From positions 1-64,000 of the forward strand of contig JAKAWS010000001.1 in NCBI GenBank assembly GCA_021816885.1: a DNA stretch of 64,000 bases, in the 5' to 3' direction. Below the pieces are notes generated by a model. That model worked only from the letters and a program-made list of their open reading frames with translations, was not told the origin of the DNA and searched no databases. Positions 537 to 9,106 of this stretch are shown here, in pieces. Position 1 is the first letter of the stretch, and each line of letters begins with the position of its first letter. Both the position numbers and the translations under genes were made by a program. This DNA is from Microcaldota archaeon (GTDB lineage: Archaea > Micrarchaeota > Micrarchaeia > Micrarchaeales > Micrarchaeaceae).

Positions 537-3206
537 ATGGCTAAACGTCTTGAAGAAATTATACAGGACTATCGCACAGAATATTCTGATGATAAGCTCG
601 TTGAAGAAGATACCAAGGCTAAACTAATTCAGAAGATATTTGATAATGTTCTTGAGTGGAAGGAGTCAAAAATACAGAGGGAAAGAACGATAGGTAGCGA
701 AGGGCAGATAAAGAGAGCAGATTATGCTTATCCTAAATCAGTACCTAGGGTCATAGTAGAAGCGAAGAGGCTTGGAGTTGATAGAGAAGTAGCGCGTGGA
801 GATTATGACAAACAAGTGCAAAATTATGCTTACAGCAAGGCTGTGAATTGGGGTATTCTAACTAACTTTAAGCACATGAAGGCATGGTATATAACTAGAG
901 ATGAAATATATCCATTTTGGAGTATAGACCTTCTTAATGATGACATTTCAGAAATCATTAGCAAGTTGAAGTTTTTCACTGATGAGAATATCTTTAATGG
1001 AACCCTTGAAAAAGAAGCGAAAAATAGAAATTATAAGACACAACAGATAAACATAACTGGCGATTTGTCAAATAGTCTAAACGTCTTTAGAGAAAAAATG
1101 ATTAGATACCTAAATGACGAATACAAAACATTTGATAATACGCTAAAAGAAGAGCTAACTCAGGGACTAATAAACAGACTAATCTTTATAAAAAAGGTAG
1201 AAGCTGAAGAGTTAGAAGAAAAAAGACTTGAACAAATTTATAGAAATACATCAACACACGTTTATTCAAAAGTTAGAGAAGTTTTTGTTCATTACAGAAA
1301 AGAATTTGATACAGATATATTTGGAAAACCAGATGAAAAATCTAAATTGGAAGAAATAGACATACCTGATAACGTTATCCAAAAGTTACTTGATGTTATA
1401 TCCAAACCAGCACCAAACATTGAGTACAACTTCGCCGCAGTTGATGTAAATGTTCTTGGAAATATCTATGAAAGTTATCTCGCGTATATACAGAAGGGCA
1501 AAAAGTTAGTAGGAGGAGATGAGAAAAGAAAGGCGCAGGGAATTTACTATACGCCACAATATATTGTAGATACTATCGTTGAGGAGACAATAGGGAGAGA
1601 AAAGGGCAGCAAGATAAAATCGCTAAAAATCTTAGACCCAGCTTGCGGTTCTGGGAGCTTTTTGATAGGTTCTATTGCAAAACTTGATACGTATTATAAG
1701 GATCAGATTAAAGGATATGAAGATTTTTCACCAAGTAAGAAACTTGACACAATAAAGAATAACATATATGGTGTTGATTTAGATGAAAGAGCAATCTCAA
1801 TAGCAAAACTTAGTGTATATCTCAAACTACTTACACTTAACACTAAACAGAAAATGGTTATAAGCCATGAATCATTGCTGCCAGAACTTAGAGAAAATCT
1901 AAAAGTAGGTAACAGTCTAATTGAAGATGAAGTTATTGACAATGATTTTTACTTCAAGTGGGCCGAGAAATTCAAATCTATAATGGATAATGGAAAGTTT
2001 GATGTAATAATAGGTAATCCGCCTTACATTAATGCAATAGAACTATCAAAAACGGTGGGAGATAAGGTAAAGAACTATTGGAAAACGCATTTCGATTCTG
2101 CTAAAGGAACATACGACATTTACATTCTATTCTTTGAACAGGCACTTAAACTTTGTAAAGAAGGAGGCTATGTTTCGTTTATTACGCCTAACAAGTACTT
2201 ATCTTCTCCATATGGGGTAGCACTAAGAGAACTGGTCTCAAGAAATTATACATTGGTTAAAGTAATTGATTTCTCTAGTGTTAAGGTTTTCAATGACCCT
2301 TCTGTTTATCCCATAATTACCGTAATTCAAAATAAAAAACCTACAAAGCCCTATACAATATCAATAGAGAAGATTTATGCTGAAGATATGCATAACAAAA
2401 AGGAGCATACGATCTCATCTAAAGTACTGTCCTTATTACCAGAGTATAACTGGGGCATAATACTTTCAAATAACGCAAAACTAATAGAAAAAATATTTGA
2501 AAATGCAGAGCCACTTGAGAAGGTAGCGAAGGTTAATGCCACTAGTACGGCCTCAGAAGCTGATGAGTATTCAGCATTTATAAGTGAAAACTCTGGAGTA
2601 AAACTAATCAACACAGGTACAATAGATAGGTATTCAACTACTTATGGTATTGATGCCCTTAAAAATAAAGGAAAGAGTTTCAATAAACCAAAGCTGGAGC
2701 TAAGTAAAGTTAGTGAGAATAGGAAAACCTTGTATAATACACCCAAGATAATATTCGCTAAAATCGCATTAAAACCAGAAGGATTTCTTGATGTTAAAGG
2801 CGAATATGCATCACTAAATACTAACTGCGTTTATAGTCCAAAGGAAGGATATAGCTTGGAATACTTAAGTGCTATTCTTAATTCGCAATTGATGAACTTC
2901 ATATACTCTGAATTGTTTTCAGGGCTACGAATGGGTGGAGGTTACTTCCAATTTCAAGCACCTCAACTAAAAATACTTCCAATAATGAACTGTTCTGAGG
3001 ATCAGAAGAAGAAAATATCAGATTTGGTTAGAAAGCTAATTACGTCCTATAGTTCATTAAATGAAAGTGCTAATGGAAGTACATCTAAAAAGGAGAGCAT
3101 AATGGAGAACATTGAGCGAACAGAAAATGATCTTAATAATATAATTTACAAAGTTTATGGCATAACAGAAGAAGAGAAACAAATGATTGAAAATAGTTTA
3201 AAGTAG
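537..3206 (+). CDS. Type IIG restriction-modification enzyme (nuclease, N6-adenine methyltransferase, recognition domain)
   Basis: A single 889-residue chain that should cut and methylate DNA at a specific sequence. The N-terminus has a PD-(D/E)XK-type nuclease signature (D62, then E75-A-K77 in VIVEAKR). The middle has the methyltransferase: GIYYTPQYIVDTIV near residue 337, the AdoMet-binding motif DPACGSGSF near 366, and the catalytic NPPY near 493, typical of N6-adenine methylation. The C-terminal third should hold target recognition, with a helical tail. Length and domain order fit Eco57I/MmeI-like or BREX PglX-like enzymes; the nuclease domain favours type IIG. The nuclease residues look intact. 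It is the first cargo gene of the island and has no adjacent partner subunit, as expected for a self-contained enzyme. Confidence 0.88.
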   Translation: MAKRLEEIIQDYRTEYSDDKLVEEDTKAKLIQKIFDNVLEWKESKIQRERTIGSEGQIKRADYAYPKSVPRVIVEAKRLGVDREVARGDYDKQVQNYAYSKAVNWGILTNFKHMKAWYITRDEIYPFWSIDLLNDDISEIISKLKFFTDENIFNGTLEKEAKNRNYKTQQINITGDLSNSLNVFREKMIRYLNDEYKTFDNTLKEELTQGLINRLIFIKKVEAEELEEKRLEQIYRNTSTHVYSKVREVFVHYRKEFDTDIFGKPDEKSKLEEIDIPDNVIQKLLDVISKPAPNIEYNFAAVDVNVLGNIYESYLAYIQKGKKLVGGDEKRKAQGIYYTPQYIVDTIVEETIGREKGSKIKSLKILDPACGSGSFLIGSIAKLDTYYKDQIKGYEDFSPSKKLDTIKNNIYGVDLDERAISIAKLSVYLKLLTLNTKQKMVISHESLLPELRENLKVGNSLIEDEVIDNDFYFKWAEKFKSIMDNGKFDVIIGNPPYINAIELSKTVGDKVKNYWKTHFDSAKGTYDIYILFFEQALKLCKEGGYVSFITPNKYLSSPYGVALRELVSRNYTLVKVIDFSSVKVFNDPSVYPIITVIQNKKPTKPYTISIEKIYAEDMHNKKEHTISSKVLSLLPEYNWGIILSNNAKLIEKIFENAEPLEKVAKVNATSTASEADEYSAFISENSGVKLINTGTIDRYSTTYGIDALKNKGKSFNKPKLELSKVSENRKTLYNTPKIIFAKIALKPEGFLDVKGEYASLNTNCVYSPKEGYSLEYLSAILNSQLMNFIYSELFSGLRMGGGYFQFQAPQLKILPIMNCSEDQKKKISDLVRKLITSYSSLNESANGSTSKKESIMENIERTENDLNNIIYKVYGITEEEKQMIENSLK

Positions 3207-3212
3207 GTCAGT

Positions 3213-3275
3213 TTTAGAGGTCTTTTACATATGTTACCTCTAAATGCATAAGGTTAAAAGGCCTTGACCTCTAAA
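3213..3275. promoter_or_regulatory. Inverted/direct repeat array ahead of the ParB operon
   Basis: TTTAGAGGTC at 3213-3222 is perfectly inverted as GACCTCTAAA at 3266-3275. A second direct copy of the half site, ACCTCTAAAT, lies at 3236-3245, 31 bp before the copy at 3267-3276. The array sits between the restriction gene and the zinc-finger/ParB genes. It could be a terminator-like hairpin or, more likely given three half sites, an operator or ParB-type binding array. No protein has been linked to it. Confidence 0.4.
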
Positions 3276-3327
3276 TTAATATTGTATTTGTGGATTTCGG
3301 ATATTTGGTGGGTTTCTGTCGAAGCGA

Positions 3328-3558
3328 TTTTGCCCTATTTGCCAGAAAGAGGTCAAAGATATACTGGCACACTTTTCCATTAAACACGGATTCGACAGCA
3401 TGGAGAAGGTTGAACAGGAAGTTCAGAAGGCCGAAAGAGATACGGCTAAACAGAAAGCTTATGGGGAATTTATTGCTGAGTTGGATAGAAAATTAAAAAA
3501 CAATGAAATAAACCTTGAAGAATGGAGAAATCAAAGGGATACGTGGAAATTTGAGTGA
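3328..3558 (+). pseudogene. Small zinc-finger protein, start lost or frameshifted
   Basis: The frame encodes a convincing protein: CPICQKEV, then HFSIKH (a C2H2-type spacing), then a charged helical stretch ending DTWKFE. It is open from 3280, but has no ATG, GTG or TTG before the first cysteine; the first ATG (3400) would remove the finger. A GTG at 3290 in the neighbouring frame runs to the TTTT at 3327-3330, and a -1 shift there would join it to the finger (SDF-CPIC). The gene therefore either carries a frameshift, uses slippage, or starts at a rare codon. It ends 4 bp before the first ParB gene, so it belongs to that operon. Confidence 0.55.
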
Positions 3559-3562
3559 TATT

Positions 3563-4405
3563 ATGGTACAAGATGCTATAGAAGAAAGGGAATTCATTCC
3601 TGCATTAAGCATAGCTGAAGTAGAAATAGATAGTTTAAATGCAAGAAAAGAAGATAGAAGAGTGGGTCTAGATGAATTAAAGGCCAGTATCAAAAAAGTC
3701 GGATTGATTCACCCGATTGTAGTAACTAAAAAGGGCACTGATCAAAAATACAAAATTATTGTTGGGCAGAGGAGATATAATGCATTTAAAGAACTTGGAT
3801 ATACGACCATTCCAGCTATAAAGATAAATAATATTAATGAAAAAACTAAATTGTTAATTTCCTTTTCGGAAAATATTAACAGAAGAGATTTGCCTTATAA
3901 TGACACTATTAGAGTTTGTGATGAACTATACAAGGAATATTCAAACTATAAAAAATCAGAAAGACTGAATAAGATTGCAGAAGAAGTTGGAATATCGCTT
4001 CAGACTGTTGTGAAATATCTTTCATATAGGATAATCCCTGATAAAGTTAAAGACCTTGTAGATAAAAATAAGTTAGATCGCTCCCAGGCATATCGTTTGA
4101 CCGAAACATTTTGGCCCAACTCTCAAAAAATTGTAAAGGTTGCAGAATACATGGTCGGAATGACAAAGCCAGAATGGGAAAGTGTGCTGGATGCGGGTAC
4201 AGATTTGGCTGACAATTCAACGGTCGAGCAAATAATAGAAGAATCGAAGAAACCAACAAGAAAGGTTACGATAAGAATTAGAGTAGAAAGAAATGACTTC
4301 GATATGATTAAAGGAATAACAATGAAGAGTAAAACAAAAATTGATGTTTCTGACTTTATAAGTGAGTTAATTAAGAACTACTTACGGGGAAGATCCAGTG
4401 AATAA
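3563..4405 (+). CDS. ParB-like partition/nuclease-fold protein with HTH
   Basis: A 280-residue protein. The N-terminal half is a ParB N-terminal domain: the AEVEIDSLNAR strand, then KASIKKVGLIHPIVV, and the GxRR motif as VGQRRYNAF at residues 67-75, followed by SENINRRDL. Next comes a KorB/Spo0J-type helix-turn-helix (IAEEVGISLQTVVKYLS) and a C-terminal RHH-like tail. The family binds specific DNA and, where characterised, uses CTP to slide on it. An in-frame start at 3515 would overlap the upstream zinc-finger gene by 44 bases and add residues unlike a ParB N-terminus, so I choose the ATG at 3563. No ParA ATPase is nearby, which argues against simple plasmid partition. It overlaps the next gene by 8 bp. 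Confidence 0.8.
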   Translation: MVQDAIEEREFIPALSIAEVEIDSLNARKEDRRVGLDELKASIKKVGLIHPIVVTKKGTDQKYKIIVGQRRYNAFKELGYTTIPAIKINNINEKTKLLISFSENINRRDLPYNDTIRVCDELYKEYSNYKKSERLNKIAEEVGISLQTVVKYLSYRIIPDKVKDLVDKNKLDRSQAYRLTETFWPNSQKIVKVAEYMVGMTKPEWESVLDAGTDLADNSTVEQIIEESKKPTRKVTIRIRVERNDFDMIKGITMKSKTKIDVSDFISELIKNYLRGRSSE

Positions 4406-4964
4406 AAAGATTAACGAAGATAAGACATTGGCTATCTTGTATTCTAATTTTTCTGGAAGAGGTAAACAGAAAAATGATTGGATATTTATAGCCGAGAAGT
4501 TAAACGACCTTAAATTGATATATGGTTCAGATGGGAAAGTTGCTAAAAACTTAGGTCTATCTAGGGAAATGGTAAGGTCTACAATTAAACTTCTTAAATT
4601 ACCGGAAGAAATAAAGCAACTTATACGCTCCGGCAAGATTTCGCAAGATTTAGGATGGAGACTCTTGGCTATAAACAATCAGAAAACACAGATTCAAGTC
4701 GCTACTGCTATTATTGACTTAAGTGCGCATGATGCGAGGGATATGATAAGATACGCAAAAAATAATCCTGATGCACCTGTAGCGAATCAAATAGCTCGTC
4801 TTAAAAGCTCTAGAAAAAATACAGATAAACTAAATTTAGTAATAACAACTTTGGATGATGGTGAATACAACAAATTAAGACAGTTAGCTATCAAGAAAAA
4901 CAAAAATGTTAATGGATTAATCTCAGACATTGTTAAAAATTGGATTAATCATAAGGGCGATTAA
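4398..4964 (+). CDS. Second ParB-type HTH protein, lacking the N-terminal domain
   Basis: A 188-residue protein starting at GTG inside the end of the preceding ParB gene, so translation is probably coupled. It has a KorB-like helix-turn-helix (VAKNLGLSREMVRSTIKLL, roughly residues 47-65) and the following helical bundle, but no VGxRR domain. The C-terminus (LNLVITTLDDGEYNKLRQLA onwards) resembles the RHH-like tail of its neighbour, which suggests the two are paralogues that may hetero-oligomerise. It should bind DNA without its own CTPase function. The next gene begins one base after its stop. Confidence 0.72.
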   Translation: MNKKINEDKTLAILYSNFSGRGKQKNDWIFIAEKLNDLKLIYGSDGKVAKNLGLSREMVRSTIKLLKLPEEIKQLIRSGKISQDLGWRLLAINNQKTQIQVATAIIDLSAHDARDMIRYAKNNPDAPVANQIARLKSSRKNTDKLNLVITTLDDGEYNKLRQLAIKKNKNVNGLISDIVKNWINHKGD

Positions 4965-4965
4965 T

Positions 4966-5676
4966 GTGACACTTATTATCGGGGCGGAAGGTAAAGATTT
5001 TGTAGTATTAGCAGCAGATAGTAAGGGTACCTTCCTTGAAGATGGCTCACGAATGGAATCTATAACCGAGGAGAAACTAATTCAACTCACAGATTATTCC
5101 TGTGTTTTAATTGCTGGAGATGCCGAAATCGGAGTTCAATTAATCGAAGATTTTAAAGAAAAGCACAGATTTTCTAAGAATTTAGGAATCTCTAAGGTAG
5201 TGCTTCTTTTCCGTGACTTTTGCAAAAAGGAAATGGGTCATATTACCGATACAATATTACCTGGCCATCCTGCATATCCAGACATTGTTTTTTTGGTTGG
5301 TGGAGTTGATAAAAAGGGCAAAGGATGTGTACCCAGATTAAGAATATTAAGAAGTTCAACCTTATTCTTCGCAGGTAGGCATAGAGATAAAGTTGCAGAA
5401 GGTGTGCCACTTATAGCTCGTTACATTCTCTCTAAAGAATACAATAGAAATCAATCTCAAGAAGCCATGGGTTTTTTAGTTGCTAAGGCCATGCGTGAAA
5501 CAATAAGTATTAATGCTGAAGTAGGGGGTAAGATAAGAATGGCAATTGTCCGTAATAATGGAGTACAGGTATTCAATGATAACGTAGTTAAAAAATATAT
5601 GGATGGTCCTGAAGAAGATGAAAGATTAAAGTTGAAGGCTGAACGTGAAGAGCTTGAAAAACTTATTAAAGAATAA
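4966..5676 (+). CDS. Proteasome-beta/HslV-like Ntn hydrolase
   Basis: A 236-residue protein if translated from the GTG at 4966, one base after the previous stop. This start gives M-T-L-I-I-G, so removal of Met would expose Thr as the N-terminal nucleophile, as in HslV and proteasome beta subunits. The fold signatures follow: FVVLAADSKG with the Asp equivalent to D17, a lysine in EEKLIQL matching catalytic K33, and the VLIAGDAE strand. The C-terminus has a charged helical extension. A longer start at 4930 would bury the Thr. No unfoldase ATPase is encoded nearby. The gene is fourth in an operon with two ParB-like proteins on a mobile element, a setting I do not recognise for this family. It may be a regulated protease or a non-proteolytic ring. 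Confidence 0.75.
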   Translation: MTLIIGAEGKDFVVLAADSKGTFLEDGSRMESITEEKLIQLTDYSCVLIAGDAEIGVQLIEDFKEKHRFSKNLGISKVVLLFRDFCKKEMGHITDTILPGHPAYPDIVFLVGGVDKKGKGCVPRLRILRSSTLFFAGRHRDKVAEGVPLIARYILSKEYNRNQSQEAMGFLVAKAMRETISINAEVGGKIRMAIVRNNGVQVFNDNVVKKYMDGPEEDERLKLKAEREELEKLIKE

Positions 5677-5681
5677 CTTAT

Positions 5682-6596
5682 TTACTTTTTCCAGAAAAGC
5701 ACCACATCGTGATTTTGTTTTAGATTATTTGTCGTTGCTAATTCAGCATATATTGCTTTTCCTCTTCTTCTTTGGCTAACTGAATCTTTAGTAATCTTAA
5801 CAGCATAACCACAATCTTCAAGACCTATTTCTTCACAAATAACTGATAATCGTCTTGACAATGAAATGAACTTGCCCTTTCTTACCAAATCGCCTATTAA
5901 GATGCATAAATGTCCATCTTTGTTCAAGATTCTTTGTGATTCCATTAAAATGTTTCGCATACTTTCTAAAAATTCATCTAGTGAAAGCTTTGAAACATCT
6001 TCACTTTTAGAAGAATATCTAACCATATCTAGATAAGGAGGATGTAGAAATACAAGGTCAGTTGATAGAGTAGCTACAGGTATATGTCTGCTATCATTTT
6101 CTATAATATCTTTTCTAGTAGGAGTCAAATCAAATGCTTTGATTTTTCTTTGGTGTGCTTTACATACGTCAATAGTTGTTCCTGAACCAGCCATAGGATC
6201 AACTACTGAATCACCATTTTTTGTTAATCGTAATACACATTGTTCTACTACTTGAGTTGGTGCATTTCCATGAAAATTAGAATCACCGGCATAGTTATCT
6301 CTATTTCCAAATTCCCATACAGAAGATAAGATTATTCCTTCTTCAGCAGTTTTTTTTAATAAATTTAGCTTCTTTCTCATATTTTTGCTTTTTGCAACTG
6401 CCGCTAAGGCATTCTTCAAAAGGTCTTTTTCATATTTCTTTTTCCTATTTATTATTTGTACCATTTTTTGGTTTACAAAGGGATTATGCATTTTAACTAA
6501 TTGAACAGCAACGTCTAAAGGCAAATCTCTTTCTTTTACTGCCTGTTTTAATCCGTCAGGTAATCCAATTATACGCATATCATAAGTTGTTTCCAT
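5682..6596 (-). CDS. Site-specific DNA methyltransferase
   Basis: A 304-residue DNA methylase. The AdoMet-binding motif DPMAGSGTT is near residue 133 and the catalytic tetrapeptide appears as HPPY near 184, preceded by LVFL. This motif order and the PPY core fit N6-adenine or N4-cytosine methylation. The first position of the usual D/N/S-PPY is His, which is unusual. An in-frame ATG exists at 6659, but the ATG at 6596 has a good Shine-Dalgarno sequence (AGGAGG, about 7 bases ahead), so I start there. The gene is convergent with the Ntn hydrolase, with 5 bp between stops. No nuclease is fused to it, so it is an orphan methylase or part of the neighbouring system. Confidence 0.82.
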   Translation of the reverse strand: METTYDMRIIGLPDGLKQAVKERDLPLDVAVQLVKMHNPFVNQKMVQIINRKKKYEKDLLKNALAAVAKSKNMRKKLNLLKKTAEEGIILSSVWEFGNRDNYAGDSNFHGNAPTQVVEQCVLRLTKNGDSVVDPMAGSGTTIDVCKAHQRKIKAFDLTPTRKDIIENDSRHIPVATLSTDLVFLHPPYLDMVRYSSKSEDVSKLSLDEFLESMRNILMESQRILNKDGHLCILIGDLVRKGKFISLSRRLSVICEEIGLEDCGYAVKITKDSVSQRRRGKAIYAELATTNNLKQNHDVVLFWKK

Positions 6597-6745
6597 CCTG
6601 CATCCTCCTGCAATATATGGTAACGCTGTATTTAAAACCCTTCCTGCACTGTCCTGCATATGTAAATACTGTAGAGGATTAGGCTCTCTGAGGCAAATAT
6701 CCTAATAAAAGGCAAAAAATATAGCCTTAAAACAAAAAGATAATA

Positions 6746-7609
6746 ATGGGGGTTGCTGAAGAGATAGGACATGATGCAAACGGAAGAGAGTTATTTAGAT
6801 ACGACTATCTCAAGCAAGCATTTACTCCTGAGATTTGGAACGACACAAAGATAATAAGAAGCGAACTCCAAACGCCGAGTAATGCGAAGAACACTAATGT
6901 TTTTGAAGTTGATATCTCTGACATAAAGAATAATGTCTTCGTGCCAAGATACTACTGGAAACGAAGGACAGAGACACTTAAAGAGGTTGCAGAGAAGCAA
7001 GGCATGAAGTTTGTCAAGATGTCAGAATTGATAGACAAGGGGATAATAGAGCATTCTGACGGACACGGCTCTCCGCCTTCTGAGTTCAAGGGCAAGGGAG
7101 AAATACCTTACATTCGTGTCGCTGATATTGTGAATTGGGAGATATATAAGAACCCAACAGCACTTATACCAAAGAGTATTTATCTTGCAAAGAAAGGCAA
7201 GTCAGGTATAGACCTTCAAACAAATGATATTCTATATGTCAGGAGAGGAAGTTATAGGATAGGGAGCGTTGCTCTCGTATCTCCTTACGATAAGGAAGTT
7301 CTGCTTACAAGGGAGCTATCAATATTCAGAGTTGTAAAAGAGGACAACGAATATGGGATTAATCCGTATTACTTGGTCTATCTATTCTCACATACACTTA
7401 CACAACAACAGCTCTATAATCTCGTATTCATAGATACGACCCTGCCCAATCTTGGAAGGAGATGGTCGGAGCTATACCTTCCAATAGCAAAGAACCCTAA
7501 GGAAAGAGAGCATATAACAGAAAGGATAAAGCATGTCTTTGACAAGAAGGAAGAGGCAAACAAGGAGATAAACAAACTGAAGGGAGAGTTAGGAAGTTTT
7601 ATTACTTAG
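6746..7609 (+). pseudogene. Type I-like modification/specificity protein remnant
   Basis: 287 residues. The first 20 (VAEEIGHDANGREL) look like the end of an HsdM-type methyltransferase, and the rest is a single target-recognition domain (GEIPYIRVADIVNW, NDILYVRRGSYRIGSVALV, LPNLGRRWSELYLPI) plus a coiled helix, as in one half of an HsdS subunit. The catalytic methylase part is absent and an in-frame stop lies just upstream. I read it as the 3' end of a fused methylase-specificity gene, left after deletion; it could still be expressed as a solitary recognition protein. It overlaps the small convergent gene at 7602-7781 by 8 bp. Confidence 0.6.
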
Positions 7610-7781
7610 TCTTATCTTCTTTGAATATTCTAATCATCAGTTTCTTTCCTATAAATTCGGATAGCTTTGGCGACCTAATTGTAATGCTGCCATATCTGTA
7701 TTCCTTTGTAGAGCCATCTGATAGTTTTTTGGTATCTGTTCCCGAACACACATTTACTCTAAAAGTTCCAACTTGCTTCAT
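7602..7781 (-). CDS. Small transposon-encoded protein, AbrB/DUF2080-like
   Basis: A 59-residue protein starting MKQVGTFRVNVC and ending RIFKEDKTK. The segment SITIRSPKLSEFIGKKLMI resembles the swapped-hairpin pattern of AbrB-type DNA-binding proteins and of the small transposon-encoded family DUF2080; this is pattern resemblance only. It is divergent from the transposase, and the 113-bp gap between them holds three identical palindromes. An autoregulator of transposase expression is the simplest hypothesis. It is too short for common ORF cut-offs. Confidence 0.6.
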   Translation of the reverse strand: MKQVGTFRVNVCSGTDTKKLSDGSTKEYRYGSITIRSPKLSEFIGKKLMIRIFKEDKTK

Positions 7782-7894: not shown

Positions 7895-9106
7895 ATGAAC
7901 GCAAGAAAACAGAAGGGAGAACAGCTCGCAAAGACAGTCCAGATACAGAAGAAGGGACTGGACAAGTGGATAGTTCCAAGCCAGACAGGAAGCGGAGCTT
8001 ACACAGTAAATAGGCTCGGCGAGAACTTCAAGTGCAGTTGCCCAGACTTCCAAAATAGAGGCCAGGCATGTAAACACATCTACGCTGTGGAAATCAAGGT
8101 TCTAAGGTGGTTTGACAACGAGGGCAATAGCGGCACAGAAATCACGATTAGGAAGACTTATCCTCAAGACTGGGCTAACTATACGAAGGCTCAGACAGAA
8201 GAAGGAAGGCTCTTCAAGGAACTGCTAAAGGATTTGGTGCAGAATGTCCCAGAGCCAATAAGGAAAGAGGGTGCAGGAAGACCGAGAGTGCCGTTAAAAG
8301 ACGCCATATACTGCTCGGTGGAAAAGGTCTATTCTATGCAGTCAAGCAGAAGGGCAAGGTCAAGGTATGTAGAAGCACAGGTTAAGGGGAATATATCCAA
8401 AGCACTGAGTTATAACGTGGTGAACATAACTCTGAATGACATAACCATAACCCCTATTTTGCAGGATTTACTGCATATCACGACCATGCCGTTGAAGGGT
8501 GTGGAGACAAAGTTCAGCCCTGATAGCACAGGGTTTAGGACTTCTCAGTTCAGCGACTACTGCGAAAAGAAGCACAATACAAAGAAACAGCACAAGTGGA
8601 TAAAGTGCCATGCTATTACAGGCAATACAACGAATATCGTAGTTAGTGCAGTAATAACGGATGAGAACGGAGCTGACAGTCCGCAGTTCATACCCCTTGT
8701 CCAAGACGTAGCTAACATGGGTTTTGATATGCAAGAGGTAAGTGCCGATAAAGCCTACAATTCAATAAATAACTATAATGCAGTTCAAGCAATGGGTGGA
8801 ACTGCATACATACCGTATAGGAGCAATACTACTGCTATGTCTAATACAGGAAACAGAGCAAGATTATGGCGCAAAATGTTCCATTACTTCCAGTTGAACA
8901 ACGACGAGTTCATGGAACATTATCATAATAGGAGCAACGTAGAAACTACCTTTCACGCAATAAAGGCGAAGTTAGGCGATAGTGTAAAGAACAAGACCTT
9001 TGTGTCTCAGACTAATGAGCTATTGTGCAAGCTGATAGCCTACAATATAACTGTCCTAATAAGTGCCATGTATGAGTTGAAGATAGAGCCTACATTTGTC
9101 TCTTAA
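7895..9106 (+). CDS. SWIM-zinc-finger DDE transposase
   Basis: 403 residues. A SWIM zinc finger lies at C47-x-C49 and C59-x-H61 (CSCPDFQNRGQACKH), followed by an IS4/IS5-like RNase H-fold catalytic domain. The likely catalytic triad is D210 in SPDSTGF, D285 in SADKAYN and E350 in SNVETTFHAIK, with the usual Y/N-rich helix around the glutamate. All three are present, so the enzyme looks active. The SWIM finger probably reads the subterminal TGCTCATAAAT-like motifs. Expression is likely controlled through the palindromes just upstream. The coding end overlaps the convergent zinc-ribbon gene by 17 bp. Confidence 0.85.
   Translation: MNARKQKGEQLAKTVQIQKKGLDKWIVPSQTGSGAYTVNRLGENFKCSCPDFQNRGQACKHIYAVEIKVLRWFDNEGNSGTEITIRKTYPQDWANYTKAQTEEGRLFKELLKDLVQNVPEPIRKEGAGRPRVPLKDAIYCSVEKVYSMQSSRRARSRYVEAQVKGNISKALSYNVVNITLNDITITPILQDLLHITTMPLKGVETKFSPDSTGFRTSQFSDYCEKKHNTKKQHKWIKCHAITGNTTNIVVSAVITDENGADSPQFIPLVQDVANMGFDMQEVSADKAYNSINNYNAVQAMGGTAYIPYRSNTTAMSNTGNRARLWRKMFHYFQLNNDEFMEHYHNRSNVETTFHAIKAKLGDSVKNKTFVSQTNELLCKLIAYNITVLISAMYELKIEPTFVS

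What the first reader, a model, noticed from the sequence alone, without database searches (positions are those of the whole stretch)
3328..6596. Candidate undescribed system: zinc finger, two ParB/HTH proteins, proteasome-like hydrolase, DNA methylase
Four genes are packed with overlaps or gaps of 1-4 bp, with a convergent methylase 5 bp away, on a mobile element and with no ParA or unfoldase. ParB proteins that load on specific DNA plus a Thr-nucleophile ring would make a logical sensor-effector pair, perhaps gated by methylation. I know no named defence or partition system with this set; the function is inference.
Basis: partly seen in the sequence, partly recalled or inferred. Interest (0 to 1): 0.8.

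Follow-up and report, generated by a model that had tools for sequence, protein, structure and literature searches.

The report
Archaeal ParB–proteasome DNA-modification cassette
A tightly packed set of archaeal genes (a zinc finger, two ParB-type DNA-binding proteins and a proteasome-like enzyme) recurs, in the same order, in seven separate mobile loci; in six loci with all or part of it, a DNA-modification gene carries the same kind of repeated short control site, so it looks like an undescribed switch or defence system, with function still untested.

Summary
Window 3316-5676 encodes ZnF–ParB1–ParB2–Ntn, with an N4/N6-type methylase converging 5 bp away. Profile searches found the same four genes (same order, gaps about -14 to +14 bp) in Bathyarchaeota L055 and L056, another archaeon of that phylum (L109), the phylum of a Pacearchaeota genome (L117) and an IMG/VR contig (L128); L097 has ParB1–ParB2–Ntn. 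L117 also has the convergent methylase (46% identical), so the window's five-gene layout recurs. In the others the partner is a PAPS-reductase/SspD-like gene. DNA links the two partner types: an array of TGCAGGA (4-6 copies) sits at the promoter of the window methylase and of the PAPS-reductase gene in L055, L056, L096 and L109 (variant GCAGGG in L128). In the window no other 7-mer is so clustered. Ntn has the Thr1/Asp17/Lys/Gly residues and a proteasome-beta fold; ParB1 resembles Noc/KorB. No ParA or unfoldase lies nearby. Best reading: a mobile conflict/regulatory cassette in which the ParB pair is a CTP-gated KorB/DndB-like switch on a DNA-modification gene, with the Ntn hydrolase as protease arm. 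Defence activity, proteolysis and ring assembly are not shown. No paper or library searched names this set.

The parts
3316..3558 (+). ZnF: small C2H2-type zinc-finger protein (CPIC...HFSIKH) with helical tail; probable CTG start
   Evidence: Frame read; C6, C9, H19, H24 invariant in 5 cassette loci; SD-like GGTGG at 3307-3311
3563..4405 (+). ParB1: ParB N-terminal CTPase-type domain (GQRR and ENxxR motifs) + HTH + C-terminal two-helix, RHH-like domain
   Evidence: Pfam PF02195 1e-17; PDB profile hits Noc/ParB/KorB; AF2 pLDDT 79.5, Foldseek best Noc 7nfu; motifs conserved
4398..4964 (+). ParB2: HTH_ParB + the same C-terminal domain, without the CTPase domain
   Evidence: Pfam HTH_ParB 2e-12, no PF02195; matches ParB1 residues 90-276; conserved in all cassettes
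4966..5676 (+). Ntn: proteasome-beta-like hydrolase, Thr directly after the initiator; long C-terminal helix
   Evidence: PF00227 7e-10; T2, D18, K37, G51 conserved; AF2 pLDDT 86.7, Foldseek 20S beta TM 0.70-0.80
5682..6596 (-). MTase: convergent DNA methylase of the N4/N6 class with atypical motif IV HPPY; N-terminus lacks the ParB domain of its L098 relative
   Evidence: PF01555 1e-20; 46% identical to the convergent MTase of L117 and 44% to the L098 fusion
6596..6658 (-). TGCAGGA heptamer array (6596, 6606, 6642, 6652), two 10-bp-spaced pairs flanking the TATA-like TTTTAAATA (6629-6637) of the MTase promoter
   Evidence: Only 7-mer with 4 or more copies within 130 bp in the window; only place in the 795-kb assembly with same-strand pairs within 30 bp; same element in L055, L056, L096, L109
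3213..3275 (.). Repeat TTTAGAGGT(C) x3 (one forward, two inverted) upstream of the ZnF operon; possible second operator
   Evidence: the repeat finder; not seen in the other loci read, function unknown

Best explanation
A mobile archaeal conflict/regulatory cassette built round a DNA-modification gene. ParB1 (a CTPase clamp of the Noc/KorB type) and its partner ParB2 (HTH without CTPase), perhaps with the zinc finger, bind the TGCAGGA array at the promoter of the modification gene (methylase here, SspD-like PAPS-reductase elsewhere) and hold it in check, as DndB does for dnd and KorB/KorA do on plasmid RK2. The Ntn hydrolase, made from the same operon, is the protease arm: when the ParB complex senses foreign or wrongly modified DNA or a change in nucleotides, it cleaves the regulator or a cellular target. 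Shown: conserved operon, conserved array at the promoter of the partner gene, conserved catalytic residues, predicted folds. Inferred: which protein binds the array, repression, the trigger, protease activity, and a defence role.
For: Same operon in 7 separate loci (L097 without the ZnF); distances of Ntn, ParB1 and ParB2 correlate (r 0.83-0.92, Mantel p at most 31/5040), though joint descent alone gives this. TGCAGGA array at the modification-gene promoter in 5 loci plus a GCAGGG variant in L128; in L096 only ParB2, PAPS-reductase and array remain, pointing to ParB2 as a binder. In the window the array flanks the TATA-like box. The PAPS-reductase of L055 matches SspD 1.4e-29. ParB1 matches Noc/KorB. 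Neighbours: type IIG R-M in the window, type I R-M in L055, BREX in L096. Precedent: DndB (placed in the ParB superfamily, PMC10853773) regulates dnd through repeated promoter sites (PMC4507180).
Against: No array of this sequence in L117 or L097, although both keep ParB1–ParB2–Ntn. In the window the array is at the MTase promoter, not at the ParB operon. No measured activity of any component. The Ntn gene has no unfoldase partner. MTase motif IV is HPPY/HLPY, so catalysis is uncertain. Proximity to R-M/BREX genes is common in mobile archaeal islands.
Confidence: 0.45

Rival explanations
1. Partition/maintenance module of a mobile element: the heptamer array is a centromere (parS-like) and the ParB pair segregates or stabilises the element; Ntn is an accessory.
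For: ParB fold and HTH; repeated direct heptads resemble centromere/operator heptads of plasmid systems such as omega of pSM19035 (own knowledge); integrases near L056 and L109, element genes on L128.
Against: No ParA/SegA-type ATPase recognised beside any cassette examined; L117 sits among chromosomal housekeeping genes; the array always lies on a gene promoter, not in a free intergenic site.
Confidence: 0.15
2. Regulatory cassette of viruses/integrative elements: Ntn is a switch protease (ImmA-like logic) that destroys the ParB-type repressor to induce the element, and the modification gene protects the element's DNA from host restriction.
For: Provirus portal/capsid genes beside L096; IMG/VR contig L128 carries the full cassette; solo Ntn relatives sit beside recombinases (L116) or on a viral contig (L130).
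Against: No structural viral genes recognised near L055, L056, L109, L117 or the window within the stretches read; no excision genes in the cassette itself.
Confidence: 0.25
3. The methylase is an ordinary restriction-modification remnant and the ParB/Ntn genes are unrelated passengers in a defence island.
For: Type IIG R-M and an HsdS-like gene flank the cassette in the window; such islands collect unrelated genes.
Against: The five-gene layout recurs in L117 and the ParB pair–MTase convergence in L098; the TGCAGGA array joins the methylase to the PAPS-reductase versions.
Confidence: 0.08
4. Assembly artefact: the AT-rich end of the contig was joined to a host contig at a transposase and belongs to another organism (this concerns who owns the copy, and is compatible with the other readings).
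For: The GC break coincides with the transposase at 7895-9106 and the contig starts at window base 1; none of the other genomes searched in the phylum has the cassette.
Against: It would change only the owner, not the system, which exists intact in other genomes.
Confidence: 0.2

Closest known systems
DndB/Dnd (and SspABCD) phosphorothioate systems
   Same: ParB-superfamily regulator acting on repeated promoter sites of a DNA-modification operon (PMC4507180, PMC10853773); the PAPS-reductase of L055 is SspD-like
   Different: No other Dnd or Ssp gene recognised beside the cassette; the window version uses a methylase; adds a proteasome-like hydrolase and an HTH-only ParB2
KorB/KorA (RK2) and Noc: ParB-type CTP clamps used outside segregation
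   Same: Closest solved structures of ParB1 are Noc, ParB and KorB; repression needs no ParA (own knowledge)
   Different: C-terminal domain is shared with ParB2 and looks two-helix/RHH-like; the partner is an HTH_ParB paralogue; linked to Ntn
Proteasome-like homologues of Fuchs et al. 2021 (PMC8665760: WPH, ACC, PMI, AAH, PPH etc.)
   Same: Single-gene proteasome-beta-like Ntn hydrolases in prokaryotes and phages, without propeptide and in some families with a coiled-coil tail
   Different: That survey reports no suggestive genomic context; here the context is a fixed ParB operon. I could not compare with its sequence sets, so subfamily membership is open
ParB–methylase fusions of phages/archaea (phrog_498; PMC12704722)
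   Same: ParB domain plus N4/N6 methylase; L098 carries such a fusion opposite a ParB1–ParB2 pair
   Different: In the window the methylase has no ParB_N domain and stands beside a separate ParB pair and Ntn

Membership tests
Proteasome-like Ntn hydrolase family | Thr1 after the initiator, Asp17, Lys33-equivalent, Gly47 | tested here: met
   T2, D18, K37, G51 conserved in all 8 relatives aligned
Proteasome-like Ntn hydrolase family | Proteasome-beta fold | tested here: met
   AF2 pLDDT 86.7; Foldseek 20S beta 3h4p TM 0.70/0.80, E 8e-12
20S proteasome / HslUV | AAA+ unfoldase partner and alpha subunits encoded with it | tested here: not met
   None in the cassette or recognised beside it in any locus read; host 20S alpha and beta are elsewhere (C16, C5)
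20S proteasome / HslUV | Ring assembly and peptide hydrolysis | not testable with these tools
   No assay; monomer prediction only
ParABS partition | ParB CTPase-type domain + HTH | tested here: met
   PF02195 1e-17; G-x-RR and EN-xx-R motifs conserved; CTP binding itself not tested
ParABS partition | Adjacent ParA-type ATPase | tested here: not met
   No ParA recognised among neighbours listed
ParABS partition | parS cluster | tested here: inconclusive
   Heptamer array found, but on a promoter and without binding data
Restriction-modification | Methylase paired with a cognate endonuclease | tested here: inconclusive
   Window: separate type IIG enzyme; L117: weak GIY-YIG match, E 0.099; motif IV atypical
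Dnd/Ssp systems | Modification set dndCDE or sspBCD | tested here: not met
   Only an SspD-like gene in some loci, none recognised in the window island
Known anti-phage systems in PADLOC-DB 2.0.0 | ParB2 and Ntn match a listed system | tested here: not met
   No PADLOC match for ParB2 or Ntn at E 0.1

The most novel reading that the evidence does not exclude
A new kind of archaeal immune or conflict system: a ParB CTP-switch pair bound to a heptamer array measures the modification state or presence of invading DNA and controls a dedicated proteasome-like hydrolase as effector, with interchangeable DNA-modification genes (methylase or sulfur-type PAPS-reductase) giving self-protection.
Probability: 0.3. 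Interest if true: 0.9.

Novelty: categorically new. Interest (0 to 1): 0.74.

Why it matters
Proteasome-like homologues are widespread in prokaryotes, yet their survey (PMC8665760) found no genomic context hinting at function; this gives one such family a fixed partner set and a testable DNA target. Orphan ParB proteins outside ParABS are common in archaea without a known job (PMC12704722). If right, it couples CTP-dependent DNA clamps to Thr-protease chemistry and shows one promoter element governing two unrelated DNA-modification enzymes.

Tried and rejected
Single-sequence scans with Ntn, ParB1, ParB2 and MTase in viral contigs, and with Ntn in GTDB, plasmids and phages, gave nothing, as the patterns fell on unconserved stretches; alignment-based scans worked, except one with the ParB1 alignment. 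Extra proteasome homologues in genomes of the window's family were first suspected to be the same system but have no ParB neighbours and poor similarity. Phage Ntn genes have no ParB neighbours. ParB hits in the phylum are other ParBs without Ntn beside them. A parS-type palindrome was looked for; mainly direct heptads appeared instead. The MBL gene behind the pair in L098 is recorded as a variant, not counted as a cassette.
Full report
1. What is in the window. The window is the first 64 kb of a 98-kb contig of a 795-kb, 21-contig archaeal assembly. Its first ~7.9 kb has about 33-36% GC against mostly 44-50% beyond; GC3 of the cassette genes and the IIG gene is 0.19-0.29 (HsdS-like 0.42) against 0.54-0.62 in host genes. 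A SWIM-containing IS5-like transposase (7895-9106) stands at the break. Inside the island are a type IIG restriction-methylase (537-3206), the four genes of the finding, the convergent methylase and an HsdS-like gene (6746-7609).

2. Gene check. ZnF: the frame is open from 3280 but has no ATG/GTG/TTG before the CxxC; CTG 3316 with an SD-like GGTGG upstream gives the N-terminus seen in homologues. ParB1 (3563-4405) has PF02195, HTH and a C-terminal domain; ParB2 (4398-4964) has only HTH_ParB and the same C-terminal domain. Ntn (4966-5676) starts GTG-ACA, so Thr follows the initiator; T2, D18, K37 and G51 correspond to Thr1, Asp17, Lys33 and Gly47 of the proteasome. The host has its own 20S alpha and beta genes elsewhere.

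3. Does the set recur? Single-sequence scans failed. A GTDB scan with a small alignment found two Bathyarchaeota contigs (L055, L056) at 36-38% identity. Both carry, in order, PAPS-reductase – ZnF – ParB1 – ParB2 – Ntn. Profile searches then found ParB1–ParB2–Ntn in L097, the five-gene PAPS-reductase version in L109, and ZnF–ParB1–ParB2–Ntn with a convergent methylase in L117, in the phylum of a Pacearchaeota genome. An IMG/VR contig (L128, with its near-copy L129) carries ZnF–ParB1–ParB2–Ntn–PAPS-reductase. Gene gaps inside the four-gene core run from about -14 to +14 bp. Of ten loci with a close Ntn relative, seven have the ParB pair directly in front; the rest (L057, L116, L130) are solo Ntn genes. 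Variants: L098 has the ParB pair, an MBL-type nuclease in third place and a convergent ParB–methylase fusion; L096 keeps ParB2 and the PAPS-reductase in a provirus beside BREX genes.

4. How rare. The Ntn cassette was found in 1 of 295 genomes of the window's phylum, 3 of 257 of the Bathyarchaeota class, one more in 398 genomes drawn from that phylum, 1 of 237 in the Pacearchaeota phylum, and 0 of 115 in the Theionarchaea phylum (no positive control there). A closer look at 280 genomes of the class of L109 found only that one. This is a patchy, mobile pattern. The pairwise distances of the three large proteins correlate (r 0.83-0.92), which fits joint transfer but does not prove contact.

5. 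The DNA element. Repeat searches upstream of the partner genes gave TGCAGGA in unrelated loci. Copies: window 6596, 6606, 6642, 6652 (methylase promoter); L055 5476-5519; L056 3347-3385; L096 8856-8911; L109 6602-6697 (PAPS-reductase promoters). It is the most frequent 7-mer in all five regions, and no other 7-mer reaches four copies within 130 bp anywhere in the window. Simulated first-order sequences never gave four TGCAGGA copies in 2000 trials per locus. Genome-wide, same-strand pairs within 30 bp occur only here in the window's genome; the other genomes have scattered pairs as well, L109's genome most. L128 shows a variant, GCAGGG x4, before its PAPS-reductase gene (read from the sequence). 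L117 and L097 lack it. In the window the pairs are spaced 10 bp and flank a TATA-like box, as an operator would; that is inference.

6. Folds. Ntn: AF2 pLDDT 86.7, Foldseek to 20S beta subunits, with a long C-terminal helix. ParB1: pLDDT 79.5, best matches Noc, ParB, KorB; profile matches Noc 1e-27 and KorB 1e-10. Its C-terminal region is two helices; calling it RHH-like rests on sequence pattern only.

7. Methylase. 46% identical to the L117 methylase and 44% to the methylase half of the L098 fusion. Motif IV is HPPY (window, L098) or HLPY (L117) instead of the usual D/N/S-PP-Y/F/W (the norm is own knowledge), so activity is not assured.

8. Reading. The common core is ZnF–ParB1–ParB2–Ntn; the modification gene is exchangeable but carries the same promoter element. 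That is best explained by a regulator in the core acting on the modification gene, as DndB, placed in the ParB superfamily, regulates the dnd operon through repeated promoter sites (PMC4507180, PMC10853773). The Ntn hydrolase is then either an effector or a switch protease. Defence is suggested by neighbours (type IIG, type I R-M, BREX) but not shown. No description of the set was found in the papers searched, and PADLOC has no match for ParB2 or Ntn; the literature search covers open-licence papers only, so 'new' means new to these sources.

9. Limits. The island lies at a contig end with a transposase at the junction, so mis-binning of this copy cannot be excluded. All functional steps are inference.

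Noticed in passing
window 537-3206: Eco57I-type type IIG restriction-methylase with HSDR_N-like N-terminus directly upstream of the cassette; its own promoter region was not studied.
   Followed up: partly
window 6746-7609 and 7602-7781: HsdS-like single specificity protein without HsdM/HsdR beside it, and a small opposite-strand ORF of 59 aa overlapping its end.
   Followed up: no
window 7895-9106; L056 11395-12579: Transposases with a SWIM-type zinc-binding N-terminus occur near two cassettes (window: IS5-like; L056: a different catalytic part, judged by eye).
   Followed up: no
window 3213-3275: TTTAGAGGT(C) three times (one forward, two inverted) before the ZnF gene; not seen in other cassettes.
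   Followed up: partly
L096 1995-13423: BREX brxA/brxB/pglX genes beside portal and Linocin/HK97-type capsid genes in a genome of the Bathyarchaeota class: a provirus next to or carrying BREX.
   Followed up: partly
L098 8123-9148: MBL/RMMBL-type nuclease overlapping ParB2 where the Ntn gene stands in the cassettes: possible effector swap.
   Followed up: partly
L018, L019, L020: Another proteasome-like homologue with a conserved downstream partner of ~200-225 aa in three genomes of the window's family (followed by a glycosyltransferase-like gene in L018 and L019), unrelated to this cassette.
   Followed up: no
L117 10575-11417: Protein with a weak GIY-YIG match (E 0.099) as first gene of the L117 operon, with AAAGATCTA twice at its start: possibly a restriction enzyme and its own operator.
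   Followed up: partly
L119 and L126 (G001 C5:46557-46574, C7:13833-13851): The cassette-free congener G001 has two TGCAGGA pairs; whether they are chance was not examined.
   Followed up: no
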